Shown here: positions 22,384 to 45,086 of the stretch, in pieces | How positions within the stretch are numbered: the stretch's first letter is position 1 | Layout: the number at the start of each line of letters is the position of its first letter | NCBI GenBank assembly: GCA_902761035.1 | Contig: CACWIW010000008.1 | Coordinates: 1 to 64,000 of the forward strand | From: an uncultured bacterium | Lineage (GTDB): Bacteria > Verrucomicrobiota > Kiritimatiellia > RFP12 > UBA1067 | Length of the DNA stretch: 64,000 nt | Reading direction: 5' to 3' | The notes under the pieces: generated by a model | Told to the model about the DNA's origin: nothing | The model's database searches: none | What the model saw: only the letters and a program-made list of their open reading frames with translations | Translations under genes and position numbers: made by a program

Positions 22384-22393
22384 TGGTAGGGCG

Positions 22394-22581
22394 GTCTCAA
22401 TTGCCTTTCGGCTTTTGGTTCGGTTGATACGCCTTGTACTTAAGCGCTGGAGACTGGCGTCTTTCGAGTCTCAATTGCCTTTCGGCTTTTGGTTCGGTTG
22501 ATACTCGACAAGGCGAATGAGGAACTCGGAGAGATCGTGAAGAAGTCTCAATTGCCTTTCGGCTTTTGGTTCGGTTGATAC
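22394..22581 (-). CRISPR. Mini CRISPR array, 3 repeats and 2 spacers
   Basis: Three identical 37-bp repeats at 22394-22430, 22468-22504 and 22545-22581 flank spacers of 37 and 40 bp. The repeat begins GTCTCAATTGCCTTTCGGCT on the plus strand. In the transcribed (minus) direction it starts GTATCAACCGAACC and ends ATTGAGAC, the usual type III 5'-handle form. All three repeats carry the TTTTGG allele of the main array. The leader lies on the right, so transcription is leftward. Confidence 0.95.
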
Positions 22582-22783
22582 TGTACCATAATTTGCCCCT
22601 GTGTTCAAGGGGGTTTTAGAGACATTTTTGACGGCAGACGGGTTGGCGCGAAGCAGCAAAAATGGAAATCGCAAATAACGGGCGGTTACATGGGCAAATA
22701 GGAAGAGATTGCTTGACGGCAGATGGCCTTTTTCGGGGGTTTTCGTCTGCCGTCAGAAAACGAGCGTGAGCGGGCGGGCGTGG
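22582..22783 (-). promoter_or_regulatory. CRISPR leader of the mini-array (duplicate of the main leader)
   Basis: About 200 bp closely matching 29861-30061, roughly nine bases in ten. A promoter with -35 TTGAAC (22603-22608), 17-bp spacing and -10 TACAGT (22580-22585) would start the transcript at the first repeat. TGACGGCAGAYG motifs occur at 22629 and 22714 and inverted at 22744. The right end includes the last codons of cas2 (RPLTLVF and stop), so the copy derives from the cas2-leader junction. Confidence 0.85.
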
Positions 22784-28193: not shown

Positions 28194-28230
28194 TCAGCAT
28201 AACTGCCCCGAATTTCCAGCGTGCCGACGT

Positions 28231-29860
28231 GTCTCAATTGCCTTTCGGCTTTTGGTTCGGTTGATACTAGCACCTTCTTCAAAACCTGCGCAACCAAGCC
28301 AGTCGGGTCTCAATTGCCTTTCGGCTTTGGGTTCGGTTGATACTTTTCAATCACTTGTAGGCCATCCACTTTTGGAGGGGGTGGTCTCAATTGCCTTTCG
28401 GCTTTTGGTTCGGTTGATACTCGGACTCGACAATGTCGAAATCCAGAGTCAAGGAATCGTCTCAATTGCCTTTCGGCTTTTGGTTCGGTTGATACTTGTT
28501 GAAGATGCCGTTGAGCAGGAGGTGAAAGAGACTCGTCTCAATTGCCTTTCGGCTTTTGGTTCGGTTGATACACGGCGTCGCGCGTGGAACGCTGGTGGTG
28601 AATCAGCGTACGTCTCAATTGCCTTTCGGCTTTTGGTTCGGTTGATACAAAAGCCAGGAAAGAACAGAAGGATTTAGCGGGGAAGATGTCTCAATTGCCT
28701 TTCGGCTTTTGGTTCGGTTGATACTGGTCCAATTACTCACTGTACAACATCATCAAACCTTGTCTCAATTGCCTTTCGGCTTTTGGTTCGGTTGATACGC
28801 CGCCATGTCGCTTAGGGTGTTCTCTGCGAACACGGAGTCTCAATTGCCTTTCGGCTTTTGGTTCGGTTGATACTGCCGCGAATGCGAGACGATTCGGAAG
28901 CCTTCGTCAGAAGTCTCAATTGCCTTTCGGCTTTTGGTTCGGTTGATACGTCAGGTGGTGTGCAGTGGTGCTTGGCTCTCTTATCCTCGTCTCAATTGCC
29001 TTTCGGCTTTTGGTTCGGTTGATACAACTTTCAGCATCTCCAGAGCGTCTATGAACATGCCCGGTCTCAATTGCCTTTCGGCTTTGGGTTCGGTTGATAC
29101 GCCGCCGACTCCTGTTGCTAAGACTGAAAAGCCGAAGCAAAAGTCTCAATTGCCTTTCGGCTTTTGGTTCGGTTGATACCCAGCTTATTCTGGTCACTCC
29201 AGACGAGATCGTTATTCAGTCTCAATTGCCTTTCGGCTTTTGGTTCGGTTGATACACCTCTTTACGCAATCTGGTGCGGAGTACTTGTTGCTGTCTCAAT
29301 TGCCTTTCGGCTTTGGGTTCGGTTGATACCTCTACAAGGAGCGGGGCGACGAGTTGGTGCCCGCGACGTCTCAATTGCCTTTCGGCTTTGGGTTCGGTTG
29401 ATACGCTGCAAATGTGGCTCAGGCAATGACTGTAGCACCCATGGTCTCAATTGCCTTTCGGCTTTGGGTTCGGTTGATACAAGTTCACCACAGTGCAACC
29501 GATGCTCGGCATGACTGCCGTCTCAATTGCCTTTCGGCTTTGGGTTCGGTTGATACTTTGACCGATGCAGGGAGGTTGTTGGGGGAAGTTCACGAGTCTC
29601 AATTGCCTTTCGGCTTTGGGTTCGGTTGATACCATTCGTAGTCGAGGATGGCGTGGTGCTGCTCGACCGCGCGTCTCAATTGCCTTTCGGCTTTGGGTTC
29701 GGTTGATACAGCTCGCTGCACAGGGAGAGGAGGAGGCGGCGGCCCTGTCTCAATTGCCTTTCGGCTTTGGGTTCGGTTGATACTCCTGAACGTGAGGGAT
29801 TAAAGAAAACGCCATATAGAGTTGTCTCAATTGCCTTTCGGCTTTGGGTTCGGTTGATAC
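28231..29860 (-). CRISPR. Main CRISPR array, 22 repeats and 21 spacers
   Basis: Repeats of 37 bp occur at 28231, 28307, 28384, 28459, 28535, 28612, 28688, 28762, 28837, 28913, 28989, 29064, 29143, 29219, 29293, 29368, 29444, 29520, 29596, 29673, 29747 and 29824, with spacers of about 37-42 bp. Two alleles differ at one base: TTTTGG (mostly leader-distal) and TTTGGG (repeats 2, 12 and 15-22). The leader is on the right and cas2 follows it, so transcription is leftward and new spacers enter at the right. The processed 5' handle would be ATTGAGAC, fitting the type III-B genes nearby. Confidence 0.98.
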
Positions 29861-30061
29861 TGTACCATAATTTGGCCCTGTGTTCAAGGGGGTTTGTAAT
29901 GTATTTTTGACGGCAGACGGGTTGGCGCGAAGCGGTAAAAATGAAAATCGCAAATAACAGGCTGTTCTACGCGCAAATCGGAAGAGATCGCTTGACGGCA
30001 GATGGCCTTTTTCGGGGGTTTTCGTCTGCCGTCAGAAAACGAGCGTGAGCGGGCGTTCGTG
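29861..30061 (-). promoter_or_regulatory. CRISPR leader of the main array
   Basis: It has -35 TTGAAC (29882-29887) and -10 TACAGT (29859-29864), the latter overlapping the first repeat. TGACGGCAGAYG motifs lie at 29908 and 29993 and inverted at 30023. The last pair forms a 12-bp-stem hairpin that begins at the cas2 stop codon. The leader overlaps the cas2 3' end. Confidence 0.85.
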
Positions 30062-30307
30062 GTGGCGACATTCGCCCAAGGTGCGTATGCGCTTTCGCCC
30101 AATCAAACCGATGGGGTAGTCGATCACGCAGTCCTCCTCTTCGCATACGTTTTCGGAAAGGCGTGTCCAAAGTGCGGCGAAGTCCCCGTTGGACAAGTCG
30201 CACTCAAACACGCTCTTCTCCACGCGGATACCGTAGTCCTCGCATATCCTGGCCACGCGACGAAGGCGTTTGTCCGACGCGATGTCGTACGCTATCAGAT
30301 GAAGCAT
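30032..30307 (-). CDS. cas2: Cas2, CRISPR adaptation protein
   Basis: A 91-residue ferredoxin-fold protein that bridges Cas1 dimers in the integrase. It opens MLHLIAYDIASDKRLRRVARICEDYGIRVEKSVFEC, with the conserved Asp8. The C-terminal RPLTLVF lies in the duplicated leader segment. It starts 9 bp after the cas1 stop. Confidence 0.95.
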   Translation of the reverse strand: MLHLIAYDIASDKRLRRVARICEDYGIRVEKSVFECDLSNGDFAALWTRLSENVCEEEDCVIDYPIGLIGRKRIRTLGECRHHERPLTLVF

Positions 30308-30316
30308 GGCGTCTCC

Positions 30317-31315
30317 TTATGCCGCTCGGTGGAAACGTATAGGTTCTTTGCCCTCTAGCATTCCGATAAAGCGGCATACTTCCCTGTCGATGAGCTGCCG
30401 GATCGTGATGTGCCCGCTTTCTGACAAGCTGCGACGTACCATCATCTCGTCAAACGCGCGAAACACGATGCCGCGGCCGTCCGCTGTCAGGTGGAAGCCA
30501 CCGTCTGCGACAGTCTCGAAATGCCGGTCGGCTAGTATACGCCTATGATTCAGCAGGTTGATCGTCAACCGATCCGCCAGCATCGGCCGGAACGGCTCCA
30601 TCAAGTCAAGCGCCAGGGCCGGGGACCGGTCAATGCCCTTGTGCATGAATCCTCCGGCCACGTCGAGTCCGTGTGCGCGTATCGCGGCGGTGAACTCGTT
30701 TTCAAGCAATGCGTATGCGAACGACATCAAGGCGTTCGCCGGGTTGCGTGGCGGACGCCGCGAACGCCGCTCAAAGGGCGCGTCCTTCGGGAAGAACCGT
30801 CCCAGCAACTTGAAGTAACCGTTCGCAGCCGCGCCTTCGATTCCACGCACGGCATCGACCGATTTTGCCATCGTCAGCCCTCCCAGCAATCCCGACAACA
30901 AGCGCCATTCAGTTTCGTCCGCCAACGACACATTGCGCTCCGCCGCAATCCGCTGGAGCGAACGGCGGCAATTGGCGATCTTGGCGGCTGCAAGCTGCCG
31001 GGCAAGCAGTACGGTGAAATCCCCGTCGTGCATTCGTTCGTATTGAAGGATGCGCCGCCCAGCGTGAAATCCGCCGCCGCCGTCCATCATGCCGCGCCAG
31101 TGTCCCCCTGTTGTCAGAAACGAACAGGGAATGCCCTTATCCATCAGTTTTGCTAAGACATGAAACGAGATCGAAGGTTGTCCCGCAACTATGACCCTTT
31201 CCACGTCCACGAGCGGTACGCGTTGGAAACCACCGCCACCGGCATGGTCGTGGATCACGATGTGGCTCGACTCCATGTTCACGCTTACGGAACTTCGGTT
31301 GATCACAAGTGTCAT
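30317..31315 (-). CDS. cas1: Cas1, CRISPR integrase
   Basis: A 332-residue spacer-integration nuclease. The N-terminal beta domain begins MTLVINRSSVSVNMESSHIVIHD. Catalytic residues are readable as Glu160 (RGIEGAAANGYF), His225 (GGFMHKGIDR) and Glu240 (ALDLMEPFRP). The ATG at 31315 follows GAGGGAACAGCC. An upstream ATG at 31336 overlaps the zinc-ribbon gene stop, so the two are translationally coupled either way. Confidence 0.96.
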   Translation of the reverse strand: MTLVINRSSVSVNMESSHIVIHDHAGGGGFQRVPLVDVERVIVAGQPSISFHVLAKLMDKGIPCSFLTTGGHWRGMMDGGGGFHAGRRILQYERMHDGDFTVLLARQLAAAKIANCRRSLQRIAAERNVSLADETEWRLLSGLLGGLTMAKSVDAVRGIEGAAANGYFKLLGRFFPKDAPFERRSRRPPRNPANALMSFAYALLENEFTAAIRAHGLDVAGGFMHKGIDRSPALALDLMEPFRPMLADRLTINLLNHRRILADRHFETVADGGFHLTADGRGIVFRAFDEMMVRRSLSESGHITIRQLIDREVCRFIGMLEGKEPIRFHRAA

Positions 31316-31325
31316 GGCTGTTCCC

Positions 31326-31523
31326 TCATTCGTCATCGCTCCAGCCAGGCGGATAGATTCCGCGTTGAGTGTCCTCCGTGCCGTCGAAGTCGCTTCCGCA
31401 GTAGGGGCAGCATGAGTTCCCGAAAGCGGCGTCCGACCAGGAGCCGCAGGACTTGCAGCGCTCGAACGTGTTTGCGAATGGGTCGCGGTCGTACTGTGTA
31501 CGGATGTGCCTGAACAGGTTCAT
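31326..31523 (-). CDS. Small zinc-ribbon protein upstream of cas1
   Basis: A 65-residue acidic protein with a CxxC pair and a second CxxC pair (CKSCGSWSDAAFGNSCCPYC), a classic zinc ribbon, flanked by a charged tail ending WSDDE. It starts after AAAGGAAATGAA. Its stop overlaps the upstream cas1 start region. The function is unknown; zinc ribbons of this size often bind nucleic acid or partner proteins. Confidence 0.72.
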   Translation of the reverse strand: MNLFRHIRTQYDRDPFANTFERCKSCGSWSDAAFGNSCCPYCGSDFDGTEDTQRGIYPPGWSDDE

Positions 31524-33446: not shown

Positions 33447-33505
33447 TTTGTTGTTCCTTTCGTTGTCGCGCCTCAAGAACCATTCTATCGGTCGCGACGG
33501 GGCAT

Positions 33506-33514
33506 AGTATAACA
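33506..33514 (-). promoter_or_regulatory. Promoter of the S1-NYN to cas2 operon
   Basis: TGTTATACT on the minus strand, an extended -10 about 60 bp before the S1-NYN start codon. Confidence 0.5.
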
Positions 33515-33581
33515 CGCAAAAATGAACGGTTGCAAGCGATTTTAAGCAATCTTACACTATCAAACAATGTAAAATACAAAA

Positions 33582-33655: not shown

Positions 33656-34732
33656 TTATTTGTCTTTTGGTGATGCCCTGAGTTTAGCTTTGCATATCTT
33701 GCCAGAAGCGAACTCAACGTCTATCCATGTTTTACGAAACGTCAAGGCATCAGTAGTACCCCTGAAGCAATTTATTTCATCCCCCGTGCACGGGATCCAG
33801 GGATTTTTAACGTCTCGCTCTGCCGCATGTAGCAATTTATCGACAATCGCCCACATCTTCTTGCTAGTTATCTTAAACGATTTGCTTCTTGCTTGAATAG
33901 TCTTCCCATCGGCGGCAATAGAAAAAATGGTCTTCTCCGATCCTTCATACATGGTAACCCTCCTCACGTGCAACGATGACCTCCCCCCAGCGCCTTCCCG
34001 CTTCTTGCTAAGAGCAGTGTCAAGTTCATGCTCCACGACCTGGATAAGATTCTGATATGTCAGCCCTCTGCCTTCCGAACGACACTTTTTTCTCATCTCT
34101 TCCGTCCACCGTCCAATGCGAACAAAAGGCACACTGAACAGATTCACCTTGTCGGCCTCAGAAGGTGTACGCGGATAGTAAAAATCAGGAACCTTTTCGG
34201 GTCCAAGAACATGATAGACATTGTCGCCCTTCCTTGCCATGAGGCACATGCAAGTGAAGAAAAGCGCCGTCATCGTCTTGCGGCCTCCGGCAATCAGTCC
34301 ATGGACAACACATTTGTTCCCTCTGATGACTCCATCCAACACCTCAATCATCGTATCGGCAGCCCGCATGTTCGCTGCATAGGAGGGCAGATCCTTGGCG
34401 AAGTCATTGTTTTCGTTGGGGAATATCTTGAAGGACGCTTGGCCGATCTTCATCTTGTCAACGGGCTTGCCCTTAGCCTTGAGATCGGAACAGAGCTGAT
34501 TCCAAATCTTTGAGTTGTAAACATCCTTGAAGAACTTATCTTTACCCTCCGTAGTTGTCAAAATGACGATTTCATCCGGTACGATGTTCTTCTGCATCGC
34601 CAAGGCCCATACCGCCTCGGTCAGCACTGCCGGCGATATTCCCAAGATTGCGACAAGCACGTGCTTTTGCTGCGATTCTTCAGATGGCTCAGCAATAACG
34701 GCAGCAGGTTTATTCATCTTTTTCTTTGGCAT
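33656..34732 (-). CDS. CARF-domain protein, Cas_NE0113 (TIGR02584)-like, copy 2
   Basis: A 358-residue type III CRISPR accessory protein and last gene of the Cmr operon. The N-terminal CARF-like Rossmann domain has VLVAILGISPAVLTEAVWAL, VILTTTEGKDKF and the ligand-loop signature IAGGRKTMTALFFTCMCL (147-164). The C-terminal part (about 235-358) contains a possible winged helix (SFKITSKKMWAIVDKLL) but no nuclease motif. It is a diverged paralogue of the gene at 43628-44824. The ATG at 34732 is preferred over a GTG 12 bp upstream. It is AT-richer than Card1 next to it. Confidence 0.82.
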   Translation of the reverse strand: MPKKKMNKPAAVIAEPSEESQQKHVLVAILGISPAVLTEAVWALAMQKNIVPDEIVILTTTEGKDKFFKDVYNSKIWNQLCSDLKAKGKPVDKMKIGQASFKIFPNENNDFAKDLPSYAANMRAADTMIEVLDGVIRGNKCVVHGLIAGGRKTMTALFFTCMCLMARKGDNVYHVLGPEKVPDFYYPRTPSEADKVNLFSVPFVRIGRWTEEMRKKCRSEGRGLTYQNLIQVVEHELDTALSKKREGAGGRSSLHVRRVTMYEGSEKTIFSIAADGKTIQARSKSFKITSKKMWAIVDKLLHAAERDVKNPWIPCTGDEINCFRGTTDALTFRKTWIDVEFASGKICKAKLRASPKDK

Positions 34733-34778
34733 TTTATACCCCACTTTCTAAGATTTGGTTATGCCGTAGATGGCATCG

Positions 34779-35978
34779 TCATACGGACGCGACCGCCGCT
34801 CTATCCAGCAATTCGATATGCAGCTCGCGACCGCGGCTTGCCAGGCGCTTTGCCTGAAGGCCCTGCAACGGCACGAACACCGCGAGGATCTTGTGCGCGA
34901 ACTTGCCGCCGAGGCGACGGGCGGATGAGTTAACGTCCTCCAGCACGCGCGAAAGCTTGGCCTTGTCGCCGCCGCGCTTGCACGAGACGTAAAGAAGGTT
35001 GACGTTGTCGATGCCGAGGATGTCCTCCTCCATGTCCGTGCTGGACGCAACCCGGCTGCCGGCATCCACCGACCAGCGGAGATCTCGATAGCGTCCCTGC
35101 TGCGCGAGATAGCGCATCACGGCGATCTCCCACCAGTTGCCGTTGAAGAACGAGAACGGCCAGCGGGCCTCCTCCGCCGCGCCGAACAGAAGACCGGGCG
35201 GGACATTTCCGCGCGACAGGTTGAAGCCCTGGAACTTGGAAAACCATTTAGACGCCGGATAAAAACCATTGGCGCGTCTTTCCAGCAGCCCAGCCGCCAC
35301 GGCAAGCTCTCCCACGGCGTCGGGAATAGCTAGCCGCCTGGCATACAGATTCTTGTAGTAGGTCTGTGCCTGCTGGAAGCTGCGCGGCTCTTTCTTGAGC
35401 AGGTCTGCCACGGCGTCGTGGCACTTCTGCTCTGCGGCAGGGTTGCGCAGAAGGAAATCTGCGAGCGGCGCATAGCCCTTCCATTGTTTACCAGTTGATA
35501 CACGTTCCACACCGTAGGCCGTGGCGACGCCGTTTACGGTCAGTTGCCGGCTCACCTGTGAAATCGCCGTGCCATTCGGGAAGAGCGTCTTGAAGTCACC
35601 GCCGGAGAGGCCGTTGACGAACTCGCCCGTCGCCGTATCGACGTAGACGCTCGGCACCTGCGCGCGCGTCGCGGCCGCGTATGCGCCGATTGACATGAGC
35701 TTCGTGCCGCCGGTGAAATTGACCACCGCGTTGTCCGTCTCACGGATTAGCGAAAACACGGCGTCGTTCAATTCGACCATTCCAGGGTGTTCGCCCAGCC
35801 TGCGCGTGACGACGGAGGTCTTCACCCAGGCCTGGCCGTAGGCACGCTCGAGCGCAGCCGAGGCACCCTCCATGGCGGGCGTGCAGAGATGGACAATCCG
35901 ATCCGGCTTGATGGCCATCGCGGCCAGCAGATTCGGCATCGTCTCTTCGCTTACAATCTGAATGAGCGTAGCACTCAT
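34779..35978 (-). CDS. Card1/Can2-like cOA-activated nuclease (DUF1887)
   Basis: A 399-residue effector. The N-terminal CARF domain has VNFTGGTKLMSIGAYAA (86-102), the sensor for cyclic oligoadenylate. The C-terminal PD-(D/E)xK nuclease domain shows FFNGNWWEIAVM (Glu284) and EEDILGIDNVNLLYVSCK (Asp319, Lys334). Between them is a winged-helix-like linker. Card1/Can2 enzymes cleave DNA and/or RNA non-specifically when bound to cA4. Its ATG overlaps the stop of the transposase-like gene as ATGA, indicating translational coupling. Confidence 0.88.
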   Translation of the reverse strand: MSATLIQIVSEETMPNLLAAMAIKPDRIVHLCTPAMEGASAALERAYGQAWVKTSVVTRRLGEHPGMVELNDAVFSLIRETDNAVVNFTGGTKLMSIGAYAAATRAQVPSVYVDTATGEFVNGLSGGDFKTLFPNGTAISQVSRQLTVNGVATAYGVERVSTGKQWKGYAPLADFLLRNPAAEQKCHDAVADLLKKEPRSFQQAQTYYKNLYARRLAIPDAVGELAVAAGLLERRANGFYPASKWFSKFQGFNLSRGNVPPGLLFGAAEEARWPFSFFNGNWWEIAVMRYLAQQGRYRDLRWSVDAGSRVASSTDMEEDILGIDNVNLLYVSCKRGGDKAKLSRVLEDVNSSARRLGGKFAHKILAVFVPLQGLQAKRLASRGRELHIELLDRAAVASV

Positions 35979-36973
35979 CGCATTACTTCCTTTCCTTTTA
36001 TCGCCTTCAAAAGCGTTTCAAGGCTGCCGCCGGGACGGATCGTGCCCACCCACACGCTGGCCGCCTGCTTGATCACGTACTGGTTGCACCAGATCGCGCG
36101 CTGCTTGTTGACGCCCGTGCGACTTGGCACGGGCGAGCACACGAAACCCCAGCCATCCTCGCACGCCTGCGCGATTGCCGGCGGCAATGGATCCCAGATG
36201 CCACCTGGGCACACCCACACAAACGGGCGTTTGCCGCGCAGGCACTTGGCGCGCACCTCGCGCTCCTCTGGGCTTGTGAAGGTTGAGATCACGGGGCGCG
36301 CATCCCCCCGGGCGCAGTGGCCCGAGGCCACGAGATTACTCCCGCCGCAGTGGGCGGGGGCCCCGAGATTATTGCCGCGCCATTCTCGTGGTCTCGGCCC
36401 ACTGCGGCCGAGGTCTCGTGGCGCCCCGGCCACAGCGCCGAGGCAGGTTTCACTCGCAACGAATGCCACGAGGCGGCCGCTCAGCAGCTCGGCATTGCCC
36501 ACGCAATAAGTTGTTACCGCGCCGAAGCGGTCGTGATTCCAGTTTTTCGGGTTGTCGCGGAAATAGCGCCGCACATTCTCAAGCTCTTCGTGGCTTGAAA
36601 TCAAGTTGTCGTAGAAGCTCGACTGCCACAGCCGAGGGCCGATGTCGATGCTCGTTCCGGCCTTCTTCATCTCAAGGTAAAGGTGATTCGTGTAGCTCTT
36701 GAACTTGCCAAGCACGAATGAAAGCCCCACACCCTCAACCTTGACGGCCGCGTGAAAATGATTGGGCATCACCACAAACTCGTCGATGAAAAGCCCTGGC
36801 GTATGCGCGGGGTGCGAGAGCCACGCCTCGTGCACGGCCCGCCCCAGCGCGTTCAGCTCGCATTCCTCGCCCACAATCGCCCCGAACACGCTCTTGTTGT
36901 GCGCGACCTGAATGGTGACGGAAAACCATCCCCGTTCATAGTCGATGTTCGGATTGCGCAGCGGGTTGGACAT
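35975..36973 (-). CDS. REP-associated tyrosine transposase-like protein with C-terminal Rossmann/DprA-like domain
   Basis: A 332-residue protein. The first ~165 residues are a Y1 HUH nuclease of the REP-associated type: DEFVVMPNHFHAAVKV (His72, His74) and the catalytic-Tyr region LWQSSFYDNLI (Tyr121). A GC-rich low-complexity linker (about 180-228) follows, encoded by palindromic repeats. The end (about 235-332) looks like a DprA/LOG-type nucleotide-binding fold (VWVCPGGIW, CSPVPSRTGVNKQRAIWCNQYVI, IRPGGSLETLL). It lies inside the Cmr operon, 55 bp after cmr1 and overlapping card1 by 4 bp. It may be a domesticated HUH enzyme or an insertion; catalytic residues look intact. Confidence 0.78.
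   Translation of the reverse strand: MSNPLRNPNIDYERGWFSVTIQVAHNKSVFGAIVGEECELNALGRAVHEAWLSHPAHTPGLFIDEFVVMPNHFHAAVKVEGVGLSFVLGKFKSYTNHLYLEMKKAGTSIDIGPRLWQSSFYDNLISSHEELENVRRYFRDNPKNWNHDRFGAVTTYCVGNAELLSGRLVAFVASETCLGAVAGAPRDLGRSGPRPREWRGNNLGAPAHCGGSNLVASGHCARGDARPVISTFTSPEEREVRAKCLRGKRPFVWVCPGGIWDPLPPAIAQACEDGWGFVCSPVPSRTGVNKQRAIWCNQYVIKQAASVWVGTIRPGGSLETLLKAIKGKEVMR
36311..36442. repeat. Inverted palindromic repeats inside the transposase-like gene
   Basis: CGCAGTGG occurs at 36313 and 36346, and its reverse complement at 36399. CCACGAGA occurs at 36328, with reverse complements at 36384 and 36414. The block is in frame and forms the low-complexity linker of the protein. Confidence 0.8.
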
Positions 36974-37028: not shown

Positions 37029-38138
37029 CTAGATGTCGAAACTTCTAAGATTAGGATCTTTTTTCATGGCCTCGTAAAGGGACAAGTCAACAGCCGACTC
37101 CCTCCCATCAATTTTAACCATGTCACCAAGTGGCCATTTGTAGGCCTCGGCAAACAAAACCAAACCAATCCATTTGTCATCCGATATTCGAAACGGACGC
37201 AACAGAACTGGAGACGCAAAGCGGGTGTCATCAACCGTATTCCAGGTATTGCATATCCCGCTTGAATATTTCTGTATGATTGGCAACCCAAGTGCTGGGC
37301 GAACAGTCTTTTCTGGAGCCTCGTCCAACTGCAGACCAATGTCATGGTCCCCTTTTGCAAAATCTTTTCCAGGACCAGTGTTTCTTGCATTACTGGGGCC
37401 GAATGATCGCCAAGATTTATACCAATCTGAAAGTGCGACAATGGTTTCGTCTGAGGATTTCCGTTCGTTAGGAAGCTTACAAATCAGTAACCTTTTCTCA
37501 CTAACGGCAAAGTAACTGAAAGCCTCGTTCAATGGCATGGGAAGATCCTTATTGAACGCGATGGCCCCCATGCATCTTCTTGAACGTGCTCCTAACGCTC
37601 CTAAGGCTCCCCAAATCGTTATCAAGGACAAAAACTTCTGAAACTCCCCAGCGTTTCCCCGCCACACAATTCTGATGGAAAAAGCATTCTTCTGCGGGAG
37701 GAAATACCCCTTGCTCCGAGAATCTCTCTCATTTGTATCTGGCCTCAGCGGGAAAAGGAAATATCCCTTACTTTCTGCTTCATGGTCAGGCCGGATGCCG
37801 GTCTTCTTTGTCCGAGCAACATATTTTCCATTGTTATTGCGTTCCCAATCGTCAATTCCAAGATCTACAGAATTACCAATATGCGACTCAGCAGGAGATC
37901 GAAGCACTTGAATTGAAAACAAGCTTTTAACTGGCGAACGCCCTGCTGCGCCGCCAAAAAGAGCAGTCTCCTGATCCCGTATGCTTCTGTTTGAATCCTT
38001 GAATCCACCCAATAGTCGAAACCACCAGCGAAGCTGGCCCCTGACGGATGATGCGCGGATTTCTGGATTACCATCTTGTTCCGCTCCATCGGCAATCATT
38101 AACGAAAGGATGTCGAATGAAAGTTCAATCGTCTTCAT
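37029..38138 (-). CDS. cmr1: Cmr1, type III-B RAMP subunit
   Basis: A 369-residue Cas7-like subunit that caps the crRNA 3' end of the Cmr complex. The start MKTIELSFDILSLMIADGAEQ is followed by the hallmark IRASSVRGQLRWWFRLLGG and later RRCMGAIAFN and PVLLRPF. The ATG at 38138 overlaps cmr6 by 14 bp. Codon composition is AT-richer than the flanking chromosome. Confidence 0.9.
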   Translation of the reverse strand: MKTIELSFDILSLMIADGAEQDGNPEIRASSVRGQLRWWFRLLGGFKDSNRSIRDQETALFGGAAGRSPVKSLFSIQVLRSPAESHIGNSVDLGIDDWERNNNGKYVARTKKTGIRPDHEAESKGYFLFPLRPDTNERDSRSKGYFLPQKNAFSIRIVWRGNAGEFQKFLSLITIWGALGALGARSRRCMGAIAFNKDLPMPLNEAFSYFAVSEKRLLICKLPNERKSSDETIVALSDWYKSWRSFGPSNARNTGPGKDFAKGDHDIGLQLDEAPEKTVRPALGLPIIQKYSSGICNTWNTVDDTRFASPVLLRPFRISDDKWIGLVLFAEAYKWPLGDMVKIDGRESAVDLSLYEAMKKDPNLRSFDI

Positions 38139-39183
38139 ACCGCTCTCCAAACTCCTTGAACATTCTGTTAATACCGTCTTGCCACTCACCACCTATTTTA
38201 ATCTTGTATCGACTTAAGAACTGGCAGAAAGCACGTTTCCGCTCGTCCGTGTCAATAATGATCTTTCCCTTCTTGTAGTCTTTTTTCAATGCTTCTGTAC
38301 GTGGTTTTCCTTCTTTCAAATAAGTATCGCCAAGGTCTTTCAGAAAAGACTCGTCAATGGAGATGTCAGTCTTATCCTCAGGAATGTCAAACCACCCGTA
38401 TCCGGCAGCTGTCTTAGCGCCGATACCGTTAATCGACAATCCCGCTTTCAACCATTTTACGGCTAAATTGAAATTCTCGTCTGAAAGATTTTTAAGACGA
38501 AGAACTCGAAAACAAAATTCCGTACCAGCCTTTACAGTTGGGAAATAACAAAGATTTGGGTTCTCATTGTCGAGTGCCGCATCAATATTACCCGCATAGT
38601 ATTTCCGATGGTGCACATTGAGGATGTCAATTTCCGTCTCAGCCCTGCCCGTTGGAAACGCCTCAAAGAAGCAAACCTTCCCTGTTTTTTTAACTTCCTT
38701 GCCAATAGCCTTTCCCAAATACATGTCAAGGCAGTCGTCATTTGTCGGATAACCGAATATCTCTGCTATTGCCAGTGCTTTTCTTCCTTTTTCCGTGTCA
38801 TCTTCCTCGTCATTCCAATCACACCATCCCGCATGTCTGGCAATACCCTTGATTGCTGACCCTGGAATAAAAGGAAATCCAAAATTACGGTGTAGACAAA
38901 GCCCCGCATTTTCAAGTACTCCGCCTGCCGAGTTTACGATGAGGCGAGCCCCAAGTCTAGCCTTGAAAACCTTGCACCGCGCCTCATCGCCGAAATCTTC
39001 GCGCCAAGCATTGTCCGGAAGCTGGTATTGGTTGATATTGTTAACGATTAGGCTGATTTCACCCTTTTTAGCATCGTCCTCATCAACCCCTTTTTGGGAA
39101 ATGTTGGCAAATTTCGTAATCCGCAGCGATGGTGACTGAATCGCAAAATTGGCACAGATTGATTGCAACCTAGTCCTGTACAT
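38125..39183 (-). CDS. cmr6: Cmr6, type III-B RAMP subunit
   Basis: A 352-residue RAMP protein with RLIVNSAGGVLENAGLCLHRNFGFPFIPGSAIKGIARH, the Gly-rich family signature, and INGIGAKTAAGYGWF near the end. It caps the backbone with Cmr1. It overlaps cmr5 upstream by 14 bp and cmr1 downstream by 14 bp, a tightly coupled operon. Confidence 0.92.
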   Translation of the reverse strand: MYRTRLQSICANFAIQSPSLRITKFANISQKGVDEDDAKKGEISLIVNNINQYQLPDNAWREDFGDEARCKVFKARLGARLIVNSAGGVLENAGLCLHRNFGFPFIPGSAIKGIARHAGWCDWNDEEDDTEKGRKALAIAEIFGYPTNDDCLDMYLGKAIGKEVKKTGKVCFFEAFPTGRAETEIDILNVHHRKYYAGNIDAALDNENPNLCYFPTVKAGTEFCFRVLRLKNLSDENFNLAVKWLKAGLSINGIGAKTAAGYGWFDIPEDKTDISIDESFLKDLGDTYLKEGKPRTEALKKDYKKGKIIIDTDERKRAFCQFLSRYKIKIGGEWQDGINRMFKEFGERYEDD

Positions 39184-39667
39184 CTGTAGTCTCCCCTGTT
39201 TTCTCGTCTGGCTTGGCGAATCGGCGTAAATAGTTGAGATAGCGGAGTGCTTCGTCCGTTACCATGCGAAGGACCTGAGCGGGATTGCTAGGATTATTGC
39301 AAAGCCCCATAAGAAAATCTCTCAAATTTCCATTACAGTGTCCTTTATCTTTTTTTGTTTCCCGCAGGTCTTTCATCACAGAAAGGAATGTATTGGCGTA
39401 TCCACATCCTTCAAAAGGGTCCGTCTTTCCCTCTTTGTCCTTCTTTGGTTTCGTGTTGCGATAGTAACCATCGTCAACGTCTACTTTGAACTTTGCATCG
39501 TTGACGCTCTCAATTGCAAATGCAAGAGCAGCGAGGAATCCATTCTGGACAATCATTGCTGGAACCTTCTTGGCGACTGCCCGACCACCTTCGCTTCCAG
39601 TACCAATCTTTTCTGCTGCGTCCAGAGCAATCTTCGCGCGAATCTGTTCAAGGTTACGTCCGTTCAT
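39170..39667 (-). CDS. cmr5: Cmr5, small helical type III-B subunit
   Basis: A 165-residue helical protein opening MNGRNLEQIRAKIALDAAEK, with KKVPAMIVQNGFLAALAFA and a C-terminal SNPAQVLRMVTDEALRYLNYLRRFAK. These match Cmr5, which lines the minor filament of the complex. It sits between cmr4 and cmr6. Confidence 0.9.
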   Translation of the reverse strand: MNGRNLEQIRAKIALDAAEKIGTGSEGGRAVAKKVPAMIVQNGFLAALAFAIESVNDAKFKVDVDDGYYRNTKPKKDKEGKTDPFEGCGYANTFLSVMKDLRETKKDKGHCNGNLRDFLMGLCNNPSNPAQVLRMVTDEALRYLNYLRRFAKPDEKTGETTDVQD

Positions 39668-39680
39668 CCCTGTACCTCCT

Positions 39681-40514
39681 TCACTTCATTACAACACTGC
39701 ACCAGCCAAGGCCGGTCGTCATATCTGCGCCAAACTGGAGTAGATTTTTTTCGGCTTCGAGTTTCGCGCTAAGCTTTTCAAAGTCATTGGAGCTGCGCGA
39801 GTTGAATACTGCATAGAACATCGTCTCGCTCGGAACATTCTCCTGACTGAACAGAGCCCCATTGGCAACAACACCTGATGCGTCGTCGATGCGGTTATGA
39901 TTCGCGATTTCGCAGGCGTTCTCGGCGAAATAGGCGAAAAGTTCGTCGCTGACAATTGAGAGACGGTTCTGAATCTCATCCTTCCATGTAGGCTCATCGG
40001 AAAGATTTTTGAACTCGTCTATAATGTCTTGCGGAACCGTTTCATCAGAGGCAAGCGGGTACTCTTCAAAAACAACATTGCCGTCAATTTTGAGGCACTG
40101 TGGAGCCACTGCGCTGTCGTTCGTGACATCGACTGCCGAAAGGGACTTGTGCGCATCGGCTGCAAACCGCTTCAACGCAAGAGGACAGGTGATCCATGCG
40201 AAGCAATGCTTGGCACTTCTCACAGGAAACGCCAAAAGCTTCCCCTCACCAATCAAAAGCGAACCGGCGTGTGCAACATCTGCGGATTCCGCCCCCAACA
40301 ATTTGACACCATCCTTATCATCGCGCTTGGGATTTTGTGGATCACTCCAATCAAGCCACAGATCCGCGAGCACGCCCTTGATGGCGCTGCCGGGGATGAC
40401 AGGAAAGCGCGTGTGGCGCTCGCGCGCGACCGGCTGGTCGACCGCGCCGACGGAGGAACCGCAGCCCACATGCAACGGGGTGCGGGTGAATATGGTCATG
40501 AGTTTCGTGTTCAT
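39681..40514 (-). CDS. cmr4: Cmr4, Cas7-type backbone and target-RNA nuclease
   Basis: A 277-residue Cas7-like backbone protein. MTIFTRTPLHVGCGSSVGAVDQPVARERHTRFPVIPGSAIKG is the family N-terminus, including the loop Asp in GAVDQP that cleaves target RNA at 6-nt steps. The Gly-rich end is FGADMTTGLGWC. The ATG at 40514 follows AAAAAGGAAAAACA, which distinguishes it from an upstream in-frame ATG. Confidence 0.93.
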   Translation of the reverse strand: MNTKLMTIFTRTPLHVGCGSSVGAVDQPVARERHTRFPVIPGSAIKGVLADLWLDWSDPQNPKRDDKDGVKLLGAESADVAHAGSLLIGEGKLLAFPVRSAKHCFAWITCPLALKRFAADAHKSLSAVDVTNDSAVAPQCLKIDGNVVFEEYPLASDETVPQDIIDEFKNLSDEPTWKDEIQNRLSIVSDELFAYFAENACEIANHNRIDDASGVVANGALFSQENVPSETMFYAVFNSRSSNDFEKLSAKLEAEKNLLQFGADMTTGLGWCSVVMK

Positions 40515-40549
40515 TGTTTTTCCTTTTTCTGTTGCCAATTGTTACTTTT

Positions 40550-41764
40550 TTAAACCTTAAATGCCACTGGTGCAGGAACGTAAGAGCACACACCGAGGCC
40601 AAATCCTTTTTCGCCCAAATCGGACAGTGGCTTCAAGTTGAGCGCTTCAACAAGCTTCGACGCTTCGTCTGTCGTATTGCATTTAAAGACGTATGACGAC
40701 CCTGCGGGTACAGCCAACTCAGTCGGCTTCTCTTGTCCAAGGGAGTCGTAGCCTGAAAACGCAATGGCCTTGCCGATGCATGCCGCGATCAACGTTGCCG
40801 TATCAAACGGTTTGCACTCTTCCTTCATGCGCGCACGGTAGGTCGCGCGCGACTCACCAAGACGTCGCAGTACCTTACTCATGGGAATCATCACTTTCCC
40901 CGTGTAAGTTCCTTTCTCGGACTTCTCTAGCCAGTTTGGATACCATCCCCCCACGAACAATGCAGGAGTCAGAAGCGTCCAGCGGACAAAGCAGCTCGGC
41001 TCTCCGTGAGGAAGGGTCGCCAGCTTTTCGCGCAGGTCAATGTCCGTATCCATGAACCGGACCAATCCGCCTTGTCCGCCGAAACGTACCATGTGACCTG
41101 AAAGATTTTCCGACAGCTCAGTTTCAATTTCGCAGAGCATACGAACGTCTTTGCATAAACGCAAGTATTCAGCTTCGTACTGTCCACTCTCATATCGGTT
41201 TTCAATCCGGCGCGACGCGCCTGTCGCAGGATCAAGCGTCGTCCCGACACGTGGCTCAACGCCGTAAAGCTTCTTGTCAACATTCTCCGGCTCGTCCGGC
41301 TCCTTCTCTCCTTTCCCCTTCCCGACTTCGCCCTTGAGGTAACGCTCATAATCCTTGCAGTTGATCCAGCGGGGATACGACTTCTTCTCAACAACGCGAT
41401 CGGCGAATCCGGCCTGAAGCGGTTTAGCAATGTCCGTCACGCCGATGCCGTCGTCGAATTTGATTAATGCCATGTCCCAGTCAAGCGGCATCGGCAAATA
41501 GATTTCTCCGTGTAACATAGGGAATGGACCCATCACATGCAGATCAGTGACTCTGCCGTACCAATCGCTTTCCGGCGCATTTGGATTCCTCAAAAGCTCG
41601 TGGATTGCGGCGCTGAAAAGCTGGTCGGGACGCGGCCAGTTTGCGCCATGTCCGACATTGAAGACATCTTTTTTACGATCCTTGTCGACATCCATCGGAC
41701 GCCCATCCCGGAAGAACAGCACGTCGCGTGGTTCAAGTTCAAAGCATTTCTTTCCCATTTTCAT
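40550..41764 (-). CDS. cmr3: Cmr3, Cas5-type subunit
   Basis: A 404-residue Cas5-like protein that anchors the crRNA 5' handle. The family opening FELEPRDVLFFRDGRPMDV is clear, as are WPRPDQLFSAAIH and the C-terminal GEKGFGLGVCSYVP. The start follows AGGAG at five bases. It lies 8 bp after cmr2. Confidence 0.92.
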   Translation of the reverse strand: MKMGKKCFELEPRDVLFFRDGRPMDVDKDRKKDVFNVGHGANWPRPDQLFSAAIHELLRNPNAPESDWYGRVTDLHVMGPFPMLHGEIYLPMPLDWDMALIKFDDGIGVTDIAKPLQAGFADRVVEKKSYPRWINCKDYERYLKGEVGKGKGEKEPDEPENVDKKLYGVEPRVGTTLDPATGASRRIENRYESGQYEAEYLRLCKDVRMLCEIETELSENLSGHMVRFGGQGGLVRFMDTDIDLREKLATLPHGEPSCFVRWTLLTPALFVGGWYPNWLEKSEKGTYTGKVMIPMSKVLRRLGESRATYRARMKEECKPFDTATLIAACIGKAIAFSGYDSLGQEKPTELAVPAGSSYVFKCNTTDEASKLVEALNLKPLSDLGEKGFGLGVCSYVPAPVAFKV

Positions 41765-41772
41765 GTCTCCTA

Positions 41773-43200
41773 TCAGTCACGCGGACGATTGATGAACGAC
41801 TCGCACAGGAACAACCCCAGGAAGTCCTCAGGGTGTTCCGCGAGCGTCTTGTCCTTGTTAAGGTAAGCATTTATGTCCGCATCCTTCAGTACACCTTTAG
41901 CCTTCTCTGTTTGCATGAGCGAATGTAGCGTCTCTGCACACATGACTCCTTTTAGCGCCGCCCAGTCCGCAAGCAACTTCCCGTCCTTACCACGTCGGCC
42001 GAGTTCGTATGGTTCCAAGAAACCCGCTAGTTTATAGGCGAAGCCCGCCAGCCGTTCTTTACTATTGGTCAACTTGTCGTATATCTCAAGAGCAGGCGCT
42101 CTTTCCAGCATTTCCGTTTTCCACTTACATCCCCAATGTAGGATTTCTCCAGAACGTTTCAAAACGCTCACCGCAAGGGCGTCGCGTCCGTAAACATGCT
42201 TGGCACGGCTTTCTGCTAGACGCGCCTCCTGAATGATGTCCTGAAGCGGTTCTTTGGCAGAGCCTATGGCAACACCCACCGATGCGGTAACCTTACGTTC
42301 GCCTTTCTCATTTAGTTTTTCCACAAAACTCTCCGCCAACTTCTCGGCAATTCCAAACGCCTTTTCCGCCTTAACAACAGCTAGCACGTCATCCCCGCCG
42401 GCATAGACGCGAACCCCTTCTTCATCGCCTATTGTCACACTTGCTGCATATTTAGCTAGCTTACAGCTGAAAGCTCGATGCTCATCTTTGCCCTTGAAAT
42501 TGGACAGCTTTTCGCCCATGTGGTCGCCGTCTAGGGCTATGACGGCAATATATTTGCCCAAATCGGGCACTTTTAGCTGCTCTGCACGATGCTTCTTGAT
42601 AAGATTCATCGCGCCGCGGCCACTGTTCTTGTTGCCGGCACGATTGCTAACAACGTCCAGCGCTACTTCCTTGCCAGAAAGGAAATCCTTCACCAATCCG
42701 TAGTCTTCCTCGGGCCACGCCGCAAACGTTCTAACATTACGGCGCATGGCCATCAGCTTCCCAATGGCCTTGTAATCTGCGCCCATGTTACCGGTCGGGT
42801 TCTTGAGAATCGCCCATGAAGTCTGTAAGAACGCCTCAACCTGGCTGTCAAACGCAGCAAGGCGATCATCCGATATCTTCTTCCTTGTCTCTGCGGCTAT
42901 TCTCTTCAATTCATCACGCGCCGCGGCTACCGCCATCTCCGCGTATTTCTCGCCTTCTCCCCGAGGAACGCCCACAAGGAAACGATTGGGTATCCTGCTC
43001 AATTCGTCAGCTTTTACGGCAGGGAAAATCGCTGCGTCCCAATACTCAGGAATTTCCTTGAGGGCTGCTGCCGTAATGGTGGAAAGCAATTCCGAACCAG
43101 CCTTTAAGTCTCCTGGCGTTTCGGCCTGCGCGATGAACTCCTGTACCGGTCCCAGCTGGAACAGGAGGAGTTCCTTGTCCTTGTATTCACCTTCTACCAT
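41773..43200 (-). CDS. cmr2: Cmr2/Cas10 lacking the HD nuclease domain
   Basis: The large catalytic subunit, but only 475 residues. It starts directly at the first palm region (LLLFQLGPVQEFIAQAETPGDLKAGSELLS), so the usual N-terminal HD DNase domain is absent. The second palm has LDGDHMGEKLS (224-233) and the cyclase motif YAGGDDVLAVV (GGDD at 268-271), both intact. It should therefore synthesise cyclic oligoadenylate but not degrade ssDNA through HD. It starts after AAAGGATAACTG and lies 13 bp after the ring-nuclease-like gene. Confidence 0.92.
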   Translation of the reverse strand: MVEGEYKDKELLLFQLGPVQEFIAQAETPGDLKAGSELLSTITAAALKEIPEYWDAAIFPAVKADELSRIPNRFLVGVPRGEGEKYAEMAVAAARDELKRIAAETRKKISDDRLAAFDSQVEAFLQTSWAILKNPTGNMGADYKAIGKLMAMRRNVRTFAAWPEEDYGLVKDFLSGKEVALDVVSNRAGNKNSGRGAMNLIKKHRAEQLKVPDLGKYIAVIALDGDHMGEKLSNFKGKDEHRAFSCKLAKYAASVTIGDEEGVRVYAGGDDVLAVVKAEKAFGIAEKLAESFVEKLNEKGERKVTASVGVAIGSAKEPLQDIIQEARLAESRAKHVYGRDALAVSVLKRSGEILHWGCKWKTEMLERAPALEIYDKLTNSKERLAGFAYKLAGFLEPYELGRRGKDGKLLADWAALKGVMCAETLHSLMQTEKAKGVLKDADINAYLNKDKTLAEHPEDFLGLFLCESFINRPRD

Positions 43201-43213
43201 CAGTTATCCTTTC

Positions 43214-43606
43214 TCATTTAGATTGCCATGTAAGCTTCAGGACGTGCCAGCCCGCGATCTGCTCCGGCGTGACCTCCGCGCCGATTGCCGGACGAAATCC
43301 CTCCGGATAGTCCGGGGACAGGAGCCAGCAGGTGTCGAACTCGTCGCCGTCCAGCATCGGACGGCTCCCGGAGGAGAGCGTCACGGCGGGACGCTCCGTA
43401 CGCGGCCGGAGCGAGACGCCTAGCACGCCCTCCGCCGCCGCGCGCGTGTTTTCGTGGCCCCAGAACGACGCCACCTCCGCACCCGCAAGCGCCTCCTTCA
43501 GCGCCGCAAGCGGCTTGCTCTCCACCTCTAGCCGTTCGCAACGCACCAAGCTGAACGGAAAGGAGTTCCCAATCAGGAGCCTCGATTTTGTACCTTGTTT
43601 CTGCAT
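43214..43606 (-). CDS. Crn2/AcrIII-1-like ring nuclease (DUF1874)
   Basis: A 130-residue protein resembling the DUF1874 fold of viral AcrIII-1 and cellular Crn2, which cleave cA4. Shared features are the N-terminal LLIGNSFPFSLV strand, the central VASFWGHENTRAAAEGVLGV with the presumed catalytic His, and the closing EVTPEQIAGWHVLKLTW. Length is close to the family. The ATG at 43606 is preferred over a TTG 18 bp upstream. Placed between a CARF gene and cas10, it would switch off cOA signalling. The GC content is higher than cmr2-cmr6. Confidence 0.65.
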   Translation of the reverse strand: MQKQGTKSRLLIGNSFPFSLVRCERLEVESKPLAALKEALAGAEVASFWGHENTRAAAEGVLGVSLRPRTERPAVTLSSGSRPMLDGDEFDTCWLLSPDYPEGFRPAIGAEVTPEQIAGWHVLKLTWQSK

Positions 43607-43627
43607 CGGCGCGCATTGTATCAAACC

Positions 43628-44824
43628 TCAGTCATTGCATTCTGCTTTCGGATATCCGCGGACATCTTGAAGGAACTGGTCGCCGACTACTTTCAATTTT
43701 CCACGAGGGAAAGCCTCTACATGTCTCCCTCGCTTTGAAACAAGCCTTGCAACTATCTGCTTTTCAAGTCCATGCTTCTCTAGCGACTTCCGCAATTCAT
43801 ACGAAAGACGAGGCACAATTTCAAAAACAGGCTTGTGTCCTTCACCATCCTCTTGTACGCGAGGTGAATCCCTGAAATTAGAAAACCACTTCGGAGCGAC
43901 TTTTTCGTCGCGAAGCGTAAACTCTGCCATGTTCAGTAGCGTTTCATATTGCCGCTCCTGATTGTGCTCGCCTTTGGCTATCAGCAACATAAGCGCAAAA
44001 CATGTATCGCTAAGCTCGCATGCCTTGCCGTCTATTTTCAGGACTCCGCGAGAAGCATCCACAACAAACATTGGCAATGGGAGATTCGCAGGAGGAGCTA
44101 CCCCCTGCACTTTCGAAATGAGCGTCCTATAGGACGGCGGAATCGTCTTGAACTTCTCCTGATACCAGCCGCGCATGCGCACAAAGGGCACTTCGAAGAG
44201 CTCGATGCCAATCTTCGTTGATGAGACCTCTTTGCCCGTCGGCTTTCCGCGGAAGAGCACCTGGTGCGTCATGCCCCTCTGCGGGAAGAAGAACGGCGGA
44301 TACATGCCGCATTCATATTCCGGCGGGATCAGTACATGATACACCTTGTCCTGTTCGCGGCCGAGGAGCGTCATGCACGAGAAGAGAAGCGCGCTCATGG
44401 TTTTGCGCCCGCCGGCGATTGAACACAGGACCGTCGTGTCAGGTGCCCCTGAGTACTTGCGCAGCTCGCCGAGCATGAAGTCGGCCGCGCGCAGGTTGTC
44501 CGCGCCCGTGCGCAGGTCGTCCGCCTCGTTCCCCTGCTCATCGGGCATGACACGGATGTAGGTGTCGCCGAATATGAGCTTGCCGTCGATCACGATCTTC
44601 TCCTTGCGCAATGCGTCCTTCAGCTTTTCCCACACGCAGGATTCTCCAGAAAGAATTGCTTGCGTCAAATCATGCTTTCCCGTCTTTGTCGTAATCACCA
44701 CGATATCATCGGGGACGACTGGTTGTTCCTGGTGCGCAAGCGCCCAGACCGTTTCCGTTAGTACCGCAGGAGACGTGCCCATGCCCACAAGAAGAATAGT
44801 TCGATTTGTCGATACGGATTTCAT
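43628..44824 (-). CDS. CARF-domain protein, Cas_NE0113 (TIGR02584)-like, copy 1
   Basis: A 398-residue protein and first gene of the Cmr operon. The CARF part (about 9-225) has ILLVGMGTSPAVLTETVWAL, VVITTKTGKHDL and CSIAGGRKTMSALLFSCM (134-151). The C-terminal part (about 250-398) could be a winged helix (CFALMLLIAKGEHNQERQYETLLNMAEF) and lacks nuclease motifs. It may be a cOA-responsive regulator or ring nuclease. The CARF-coding half is more GC-rich than the C-terminal half. Confidence 0.85.
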   Translation of the reverse strand: MKSVSTNRTILLVGMGTSPAVLTETVWALAHQEQPVVPDDIVVITTKTGKHDLTQAILSGESCVWEKLKDALRKEKIVIDGKLIFGDTYIRVMPDEQGNEADDLRTGADNLRAADFMLGELRKYSGAPDTTVLCSIAGGRKTMSALLFSCMTLLGREQDKVYHVLIPPEYECGMYPPFFFPQRGMTHQVLFRGKPTGKEVSSTKIGIELFEVPFVRMRGWYQEKFKTIPPSYRTLISKVQGVAPPANLPLPMFVVDASRGVLKIDGKACELSDTCFALMLLIAKGEHNQERQYETLLNMAEFTLRDEKVAPKWFSNFRDSPRVQEDGEGHKPVFEIVPRLSYELRKSLEKHGLEKQIVARLVSKRGRHVEAFPRGKLKVVGDQFLQDVRGYPKAECND

Positions 44825-45000: not shown

Positions 45001-45086
45001 ATTTTCCCCGTCACAGGTTCCCCGTAAGGACGTGTTTCAGCCTTCCACTGGCGATTTCGGCAAGGTGGCGTACGACGGCAACGGGC
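45001..45086. repeat. amrS 3' end, right boundary repeat of the island
   Basis: Direct copy of 22238-22321. It includes the amrS stop at 45011-45013 and the last ~25 codons of the intact gene. It is read as the attR-like end of an element inserted at the amrS 3' end. Confidence 0.8.

What the first reader, a model, noticed from the sequence alone, without database searches (positions are those of the whole stretch)
41773..43200. Cyclase-only Cas10: no HD nuclease domain
Cmr2 is 475 residues and starts at the first palm domain; GGDD is intact. With no HD DNase the interference outcome must depend on Cmr4 target-RNA cleavage and on cOA effectors. This explains the rich set of CARF genes and a ring-nuclease-like gene here.
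Basis: partly seen in the sequence, partly recalled or inferred. Interest (0 to 1): 0.5.

Follow-up and report, generated by a model that had tools for sequence, protein, structure and literature searches.

The report
Small CRISPR Cas10 without DNase domain
A bacterial CRISPR immune system uses a small Cas10 protein that has lost its DNA-cutting part and probably only sends an alarm signal; such Cas10s are already known, but this one is unusually small and sits beside a so far unlabelled gene that looks like the enzyme which switches the alarm off.

Summary
Window 41773-43200 (-) encodes a 475-residue type III-B Cas10/Cmr2 that starts at palm 1, keeps GGDD (residues 268-271) and has no HD domain by Pfam, by an HD profile from relatives, or in a confident AlphaFold2 model (pLDDT 90). 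No frame-shifted HD lies upstream; another conserved gene fills that space. No Cas-type HD protein reached a cut-off in the 89.8%-complete genome. HD-less cyclase-only Cas10s are known (Vibrio metoecus, Thermus; 61% of 1113 loci in one census lack a recognisable HD), so the headline is ordinary. That HD loss explains the CARF genes is not shown: the same upstream CARF5 + small-gene pair precedes HD-bearing Cas10s in relatives. Two things are less ordinary: the clade's Cas10s (455-485 aa) fall under that census's 500-aa cut-off, and the gene abutting cas10 (43214-43606) has the AcrIII-1/Crn2 ring-nuclease fold, its histidine aligned with catalytic His47, though Pfam, NCBIfam and PADLOC do not name it. 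Likely mechanism (inferred): Cmr4 cuts target RNA, Cas10 makes cyclic oligoadenylate (probably cA4), a Can2/Card1-like protein responds, the Crn2-like protein resets.

The parts
41773..43200 (-). cmr2/cas10, 475 aa, HD-less; palm 1 about residues 9-156, palm 2 about 217-347, C-terminal helical domain about 369-470
42388..42399 (-). GGDD cyclase motif, residues 268-271
   Evidence: invariant in the 24-row alignment A3
43214..43606 (-). 130-aa gene directly upstream of cas10 with the AcrIII-1/Crn2 fold; His51 aligns with His47 of SIRV1 ORF114; no match in Pfam, NCBIfam or PADLOC at E<=1
43628..44824 (-). CARF5 / NE0113-family protein, 398 aa (TIGR02584); C-terminal part perhaps winged helix (weak, E 0.071)
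40550..41764 (-). cmr3
39681..40538 (-). cmr4 with intact aspartate motif
39170..39667 (-). cmr5
38125..39183 (-). cmr6
37029..38192 (-). cmr1
35975..36973 (-). REP-associated tyrosine transposase-like protein, 332 aa, conserved downstream of cmr1 in several relatives
34779..35978 (-). Can2/Card1-like CARF-PD-(D/E)XK protein, predicted cA4 effector
33656..34744 (-). second CARF5/NE0113-family protein
30317..31336 (-). cas1
30032..30307 (-). cas2
28227..29862 (.). CRISPR array, about 37-nt repeat, spacing 74-79; a short second array at about 22390-22583

Best explanation
A type III-B (Cmr) system whose Cas10 is a signalling-only subunit. Shown from sequence and modelled structure: HD domain absent, two palm domains and the C-terminal helical domain present, GGDD intact, Cmr4 aspartate motif intact, a Can2/Card1-like CARF protein in the operon, and a gene with the AcrIII-1/Crn2 fold abutting cas10. 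Inferred: crRNA-guided binding of a target transcript makes Cmr4 cut it and makes Cas10 turn ATP into cyclic oligoadenylate, most likely cA4; the Can2/Card1-like protein is then activated and cuts nucleic acids; the two CARF5 proteins sense the signal too (regulation or self-limiting); the Crn2-like protein hydrolyses cA4 to end the response. DNA damage, if any, comes from the effector, not from Cas10.
For: No HD by Pfam, by a profile that works on relatives or by structure. One palm-2 match and one RAMP set in the genome. No Cas3_HD match. No match to the Cas10-HD profile up to E 1 (that tool had no positive genome in the same run, but the same alignment used with hmmsearch in the Python box finds HD in 15 of 35 Cas10s). 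Of three generic HD matches one is RNase Y over cut-off and the other two reach no CRISPR cut-off. Cmr4 motif. Effector nearest to cA4-activated Can2 by sequence (7bdv, E 7.2e-9, carried by the CARF part). Ring-nuclease fold: Foldseek ranks 1-16 are AcrIII-1, B116, AFV3-109, ORF114a and Csx1-Crn2 chains; VIA Z 10.5, rmsd 2.6, 104 aligned; profile-profile probability 94.1, E 1.3e-7, His51 opposite His47 against at most 1.1 in 50 column-shuffled controls. Precedents: V. metoecus Cmr, HD-less, cA3 and NucC (PMC8682760, abstract and passages); T. thermophilus Cmr lacks HD and DNase (PMC8376896, passages).
Against: No activity was measured. The PD-(D/E)XK site of the effector reads S-C-K where Can2 reads E-C-K, its nuclease part is under Pfam's cut-off and aligns to Can2 only weakly, so its nuclease activity is uncertain, although three relatives share the change. 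The genome is 89.8% complete, so an HD gene could lie in the missing part. The product could be cA3, cA6 or something else. The ring-nuclease-like gene fails Pfam's DUF1874 model and the profile match covers 70 columns only.
Confidence: 0.82

Rival explanations
1. The Cas10 is cyclase-only in sequence, but an HD nuclease encoded elsewhere acts in trans with the Cmr complex.
For: Three generic HD matches exist in the genome; L046 (413 aa) matches Cas3'' HD weakly (E 1e-4, 22.4 bits, cut-off 43.45) and L045 (258 aa) matches a Cas3g model very weakly (E 0.0097, 14.7 bits, cut-off 400). Genome 89.8% complete.
Against: No Cas3_HD (PF18019) match, no match to the Cas10-HD profile, no HD found in the operon; RNase Y is a housekeeping enzyme. 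Clade members L047, L050, L051 and L120 lack HD too.
Confidence: 0.05
2. The cyclase makes a signal other than cA4, for example SAM-AMP as in Bacteroides fragilis, or cA3/cA6.
For: An HD-less III-B Cas10 is known that makes cA3, and a III-B system that makes SAM-AMP (PMC11229360, passages); the product cannot be read from sequence here.
Against: Can2/Card1-like effector and a Crn2-like gene point to cA4 (ring nucleases go almost only with cA4 effectors, PMC12409355 passages). No CorA turned up among the 20 proteins that I scanned with Pfam; the genome was not searched for CorA.
Confidence: 0.13
3. The small neighbouring protein shares the Crn2 fold but is a cOA sponge or regulator, not an enzyme.
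For: Only 10-22% identity to the matched solved structures; the profile match stops after 70 columns; Csx15, another candidate, showed little or no ring-nuclease activity in one study.
Against: Glycine-histidine motif invariant in 22 of 22 rows and aligned to the catalytic His47.
Confidence: 0.2

Closest known systems
Vibrio metoecus Cmr (VmeCmr) HD-less Cas10
   Same: Type III-B, Cas10 without HD, cyclase kept, immunity expected through cyclic nucleotide effectors (PMC8682760)
   Different: That subset is about 600 aa rather than 475; cA3 and NucC; prophage-borne, no adaptation genes; here cas1-cas2, CARF genes and a Crn2-like gene
Thermus thermophilus Cmr (TtCmr)
   Same: Cas10 stated to lack HD and DNase activity (PMC8376896); the best seven plasmid hits of the window Cas10 are Thermus
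   Different: Longer protein and other effectors (recalled)
DtCmr Cas10, PDB 9arw
   Same: Solved Cmr2 aligned from its residue 2, so apparently without HD; best hit by sequence and by Foldseek
   Different: 592-612 residues; 23-28% identical
AcrIII-1 / Crn2 (DUF1874) ring nucleases
   Same: Fold and aligned histidine of the gene next to cas10
   Different: Not detected by PF08960 in any of 288 phylum genomes; second half not aligned by profile; Crn2 was counted in only 7 loci of a large survey
Can2 / Card1
   Same: CARF plus PD-(D/E)XK layout of 34779-35978
   Different: S-C-K in place of E-C-K; nuclease part under Pfam's cut-off

Membership tests
Cas10/Cmr2 of type III-B | Palm 1 and palm 2 with GGDD | tested here: met
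Cas10/Cmr2 of type III-B | In operon with cmr1, 3, 4, 5, 6 | tested here: met
Cas10/Cmr2 of type III-B | N-terminal HD (present in some members only) | tested here: not met
   not required for membership
HD-less cyclase-only Cas10 subset | No HD, GGDD kept | tested here: met
HD-less cyclase-only Cas10 subset | About 600 residues (PMC8682760) | tested here: not met
   475 aa; clade members with a clear start 455-485 aa
HD-less cyclase-only Cas10 subset | Makes cyclic nucleotide, no DNase activity | not testable with these tools
   needs purified complex
Type III-C (cyclase site absent, HD in half) | Degenerate GGDD | tested here: not met
   GGDD intact; definition
Crn2/AcrIII-1 ring nuclease (for 43214-43606) | DUF1874 fold | tested here: met
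   (predicted model)
Crn2/AcrIII-1 ring nuclease (for 43214-43606) | Catalytic histidine in the G-H motif | tested here: met
   His51 opposite His47; invariant in 22 of 22 rows
Crn2/AcrIII-1 ring nuclease (for 43214-43606) | Over the cut-off of Pfam PF08960 | tested here: not met
   so called Crn2-like, not Crn2
Crn2/AcrIII-1 ring nuclease (for 43214-43606) | Cleaves cA4 as a dimer | not testable with these tools
   -
SAM-AMP type system (B. fragilis) | CorA effector and SAM-AMP-degrading enzyme at the locus | tested here: inconclusive
   none among the proteins scanned; no genome-wide search for them was made
Can2/Card1 (for 34779-35978) | CARF plus PD-(D/E)XK nuclease domain with intact catalytic residues | tested here: inconclusive
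   CARF over cut-off, nuclease domain under it (23.5 against 26.4 bits); S-C-K motif

The most novel reading that the evidence does not exclude
In the window's bacterial class (named kin are mostly Kiritimatiellae and other Verrucomicrobiota MAGs) there is a clade of unusually small HD-less Cas10 cyclases (455-485 aa where the start is clear), under the 500-aa limit by which the 2024 census chose 'functional' Cas10s, in which the cyclase gene is coupled to an unrecognised Crn2-type ring-nuclease gene just upstream (7 of 7 compact loci with at least 1.1 kb upstream): a signal-only type III-B with a built-in off-switch. The small-gene family is in 25 of 345 class genomes, possibly more common in cells than recognised Crn2, counted in 7 loci of the 2025 survey.
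Probability: 0.5. Interest if true: 0.5.

Novelty: new member of a known kind. Interest (0 to 1): 0.33.

Why it matters
It puts a clear signal-only type III-B system in a little-studied bacterial lineage, and that lineage holds Cas10s with HD, without HD, and with neither site, so the value of the DNase can be compared among kin. It also shows that a 500-aa filter drops apparently intact Cas10s, and it offers a testable ring-nuclease family that standard models miss.

Tried and rejected
Upstream frame-shifted HD: rejected. The 132-aa frame 43218-43616 that I first took (P0002) is a wrong frame; the real gene is 43214-43606 and is not HD. Scan of genome contigs with the single protein found no relative; the alignment A1 found 26 loci; viral contigs none. 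PDB sequence search with the small gene's profile gave only one hit, Agrin at E 1.2; PHROGs gave weak hits to an unnamed family (6 of 9 members, best E 0.049) and one more (1 of 9), not followed. Explaining the CARF set by HD loss: not shown. Cas6: no PF10040 match, but the control rang in only 2 of 14 genomes, so this says little.

Rows dropped or not counted: L069 (1017-aa frame that does not look like one Cas10) from the later sets; L108 and L109 (same loci as L050 and L055); L048, L049, L063, L068 (5' side cut or unclear) not given an HD state (L048 was counted as HD-less); L064 and L066 (GGDD lost) left out of the second tree, kept in the first. In the 1.1-kb comparison L064 was left out because its cyclase is dead: it is HD-less, has 9.9 kb upstream and neither gene, so counting it would make 6 of 7. 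L068 was left out for unknown HD state; the CARF5 gene of L070 lies downstream and was counted as absent. Loci L110, L113, L114, L117-L120, L122, L123 were found through the small gene, so they are biased for the question whether it accompanies HD loss; the unbiased set is given apart. Of 17 stretches fetched around copies of the small gene, 11 hold a cas10; L111, L112, L115, L116, L121, L124 do not, by BLAST; the genomes of L115/L116 and L121 have a Cas10 on another contig, those of L111 and L112 show none.

Full report
Observation. The ORF at 41773-43200 on the - strand has an ATG start and 475 codons. It hits Pfam Cmr2_N (residues 11-102) and Cas10-Cmr2_palm2 (217-343) and no HD family at E<=0.1, and NCBIfam's Cas10/Cmr2 equivalog over its cut-off. 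GGDD is at residues 268-271. AlphaFold2 on an alignment of 24 sequences gave pLDDT 90.0 and pTM 0.89. Foldseek's best chain is the DtCmr Cas10 9arw, apparently HD-less; VIA's best is P. furiosus Cmr2 (3w2w), model residues 6-473 on chain residues 216-871 (Z 31.1, rmsd 3.1, 437 aligned).

Is the HD really missing? I built an HD profile from 12 relatives that have it (A4). On 35 Cas10 sequences it found HD in 15 (domain E below 1e-48, three of them not in the profile) and in none of the other 20, the window included; of those 20, L049, L063 and L068 are cut at the 5' end and L048 has no upstream sequence. The 5' side of the window gene leaves no room for HD: 13 bases upstream ends another conserved gene. 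Relatives in other assemblies begin at about the same place, so a sequencing slip is unlikely.

HD in trans. The genome (89.8% complete) has one palm-2 match and RAMP matches only in this operon. It has no Cas3_HD match and no match to my Cas10-HD profile up to E 1 (that search had no positive genome of its own, the control is). Generic HD matches number three: RNase Y (over cut-off), a 258-aa protein and a 413-aa protein with kinase and HD matches; the last two match Cas3 models weakly (E 0.0097 and 1e-4), far under the cut-offs.

Evolution. A search of 114 family genomes with the protein matched 16; a profile search of 345 class genomes matched 41. Most of the 26 named records are Kiritimatiellae, Lentisphaerae or other Verrucomicrobiota MAGs, several named for rumen, cecum or faeces; there are also single Planctomycetota, Clostridia and cultured Roseibacillus records. 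The window's own habitat and name are not known to me. On a tree of 33 Cas10s with the HD part removed (SH-aLRT support only), 15 HD and 14 HD-less rows need 3 changes of state, and starred branches force at least 2; the first tree, of 26 rows, needed 2, with 1 forced. The simplest reading is two or three losses of HD. The window clade is compact: 475, 467, 485, 471 and 455 aa for window, L047, L050, L051 and L120. From palm 1 to the end that is 450-475 aa, against 538-571 in the seven other HD-less rows that keep GGDD and where palm 1 was located, and 636-714 in eight complete HD-bearing rows. By eye on alignment A1 the missing pieces are a palm-1 loop, most of the region between the palms and a palm-2 insert. 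Two relatives (L064, L066) have lost both HD and GGDD but keep the Cmr4 aspartate motif.

Upstream of cas10 stand the 130-aa gene and a CARF5/NE0113 gene; downstream cmr3-4-5-6-1, a REP-transposase-like gene, a Can2/Card1-like CARF gene and a second CARF5 gene, then cas1-cas2 and arrays. The same upstream pair goes with HD-bearing Cas10s (L056, L058, L060, L110, L118, L119; broken into pieces in L060, with a further gene in between in L119). Among loci found through Cas10, with GGDD and at least 1.1 kb of upstream sequence, the small gene is upstream in 6 of 6 HD-less and 3 of 9 HD-bearing loci (Fisher p 0.028), CARF5 in 6 of 6 and 4 of 9 (p 0.044); with the loci found through the small gene itself added, 11 of 11 and 6 of 12 for the small gene, 7 of 11 and 7 of 12 for CARF5. 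The cyclase-dead L064 has neither gene and is not in these counts. Kinship is not removed in the p values; independent pairs number 2-3 and cannot reach significance. So HD loss does not by itself explain the CARF set, though a link with the ring-nuclease-like gene is not excluded.

The ring-nuclease-like gene. The window protein has no match at E<=1 in Pfam, NCBIfam or PADLOC, and PF08960 finds nothing in 288 phylum genomes, the own one included (the control rings in 1 of 14 genomes, B. subtilis). AlphaFold2: pLDDT 88.8. Foldseek's first 16 rows are AcrIII-1, B116, AFV3-109, ORF114a and Csx1-Crn2 chains; VIA Z 10.5 (rmsd 2.6, 104 aligned), and the six entries with Z 2 or more, 16 of 393 chains, are of this family. 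Profile against profile: probability 94.1, E 1.3e-7 over 70 columns, with His51 opposite His47 of SIRV1 ORF114, a gene annotated DUF1874 in NC_004087 and taken by me as gp29; an unrelated profile gave 0.2 and 50 column shuffles at most 1.1. His47 is the likely general acid of AcrIII-1 according to passages of PMC12830947; H495A of the Crn2 domain in Csx1-Crn2 did not degrade cA4 (PMC7293037, passages). The family is in 25 of 345 class genomes at E<=0.001; a 2025 survey counted Crn2 in 7 loci (PMC12409355, passages).

Mechanism. Shown: parts list, intact GGDD and Cmr4 motif. Inferred: Cmr4 cuts bound target RNA; Cas10 makes cOA, probably cA4 because the effector is nearest to Can2 and the off-switch has the cA4 ring-nuclease fold; the effector's S-C-K motif, shared by three relatives (L052, L055, L065), leaves its activity open.

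Known or new. HD-less Cas10s with cyclase are described: V. metoecus (PMC8682760), T. thermophilus (PMC8376896); in a census of 1113 loci 39% have a recognisable HD and 92% a cyclase (PMC11229360, passages). That census excluded Cas10s under 500 residues, so the window clade's members with a clear start would not have been in it; it also left out genomes marked incomplete. One search for papers holding Kiritimatiell-, CRISPR and Cas10 together found none in the open-access library; this does not cover subscription journals. Verdict: real, correctly read, ordinary in kind, with a compact form and an overlooked neighbour that deserve a test.

Noticed in passing
window 43214-43606 (-): Conserved 130-aa gene just upstream of cas10 with the AcrIII-1/Crn2 ring-nuclease fold, not matched by Pfam, NCBIfam or PADLOC at E<=1; family in 25 of 345 class genomes.
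   Followed up: yes
L064:9908-11374 and L066:595-2082: Cas10s of about 490 aa that have lost both HD and GGDD, by eye with an N-terminal HD remnant, while Cmr4 keeps its aspartate motif: perhaps RNA-cutting-only type III-B.
   Followed up: partly
window 35975-36973 (-): REP-associated tyrosine transposase-like protein in the cmr operon, 51-63% identical copies right after cmr1 in L050, L051, L058, L059; two full-length paralogues elsewhere in the genome (47% and 44%). No Cas6 match was found in the genome (weak control).
   Followed up: partly
L072:17202-19859: 885-aa reading frame after cmr1 with both a REP-transposase-like and an adenosine-deaminase match; may be a fusion or an odd frame.
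   Followed up: no
window 34779-35978 (-): Can2/Card1-like protein with S-C-K in place of E-C-K in the nuclease motif, shared by L052, L055 and L065.
   Followed up: partly
window 32082-33515 (-): 477-aa protein near cas1 with weak S1 and Sel1 matches and, by eye, a NYN/PIN-like middle; function unknown.
   Followed up: no
L111:7622-9298 (-): The small ring-nuclease-like domain at the end of a 558-aa frame whose first part looks like a PP2C phosphatase by eye; no cas10 found on that stretch.
   Followed up: no
window 22238-22321 and 45003-45086: 93% identical 84-bp copies, the second at the end of the AmmeMemoRadiSam radical SAM gene that flanks the CRISPR region; possible boundary duplication.
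   Followed up: no
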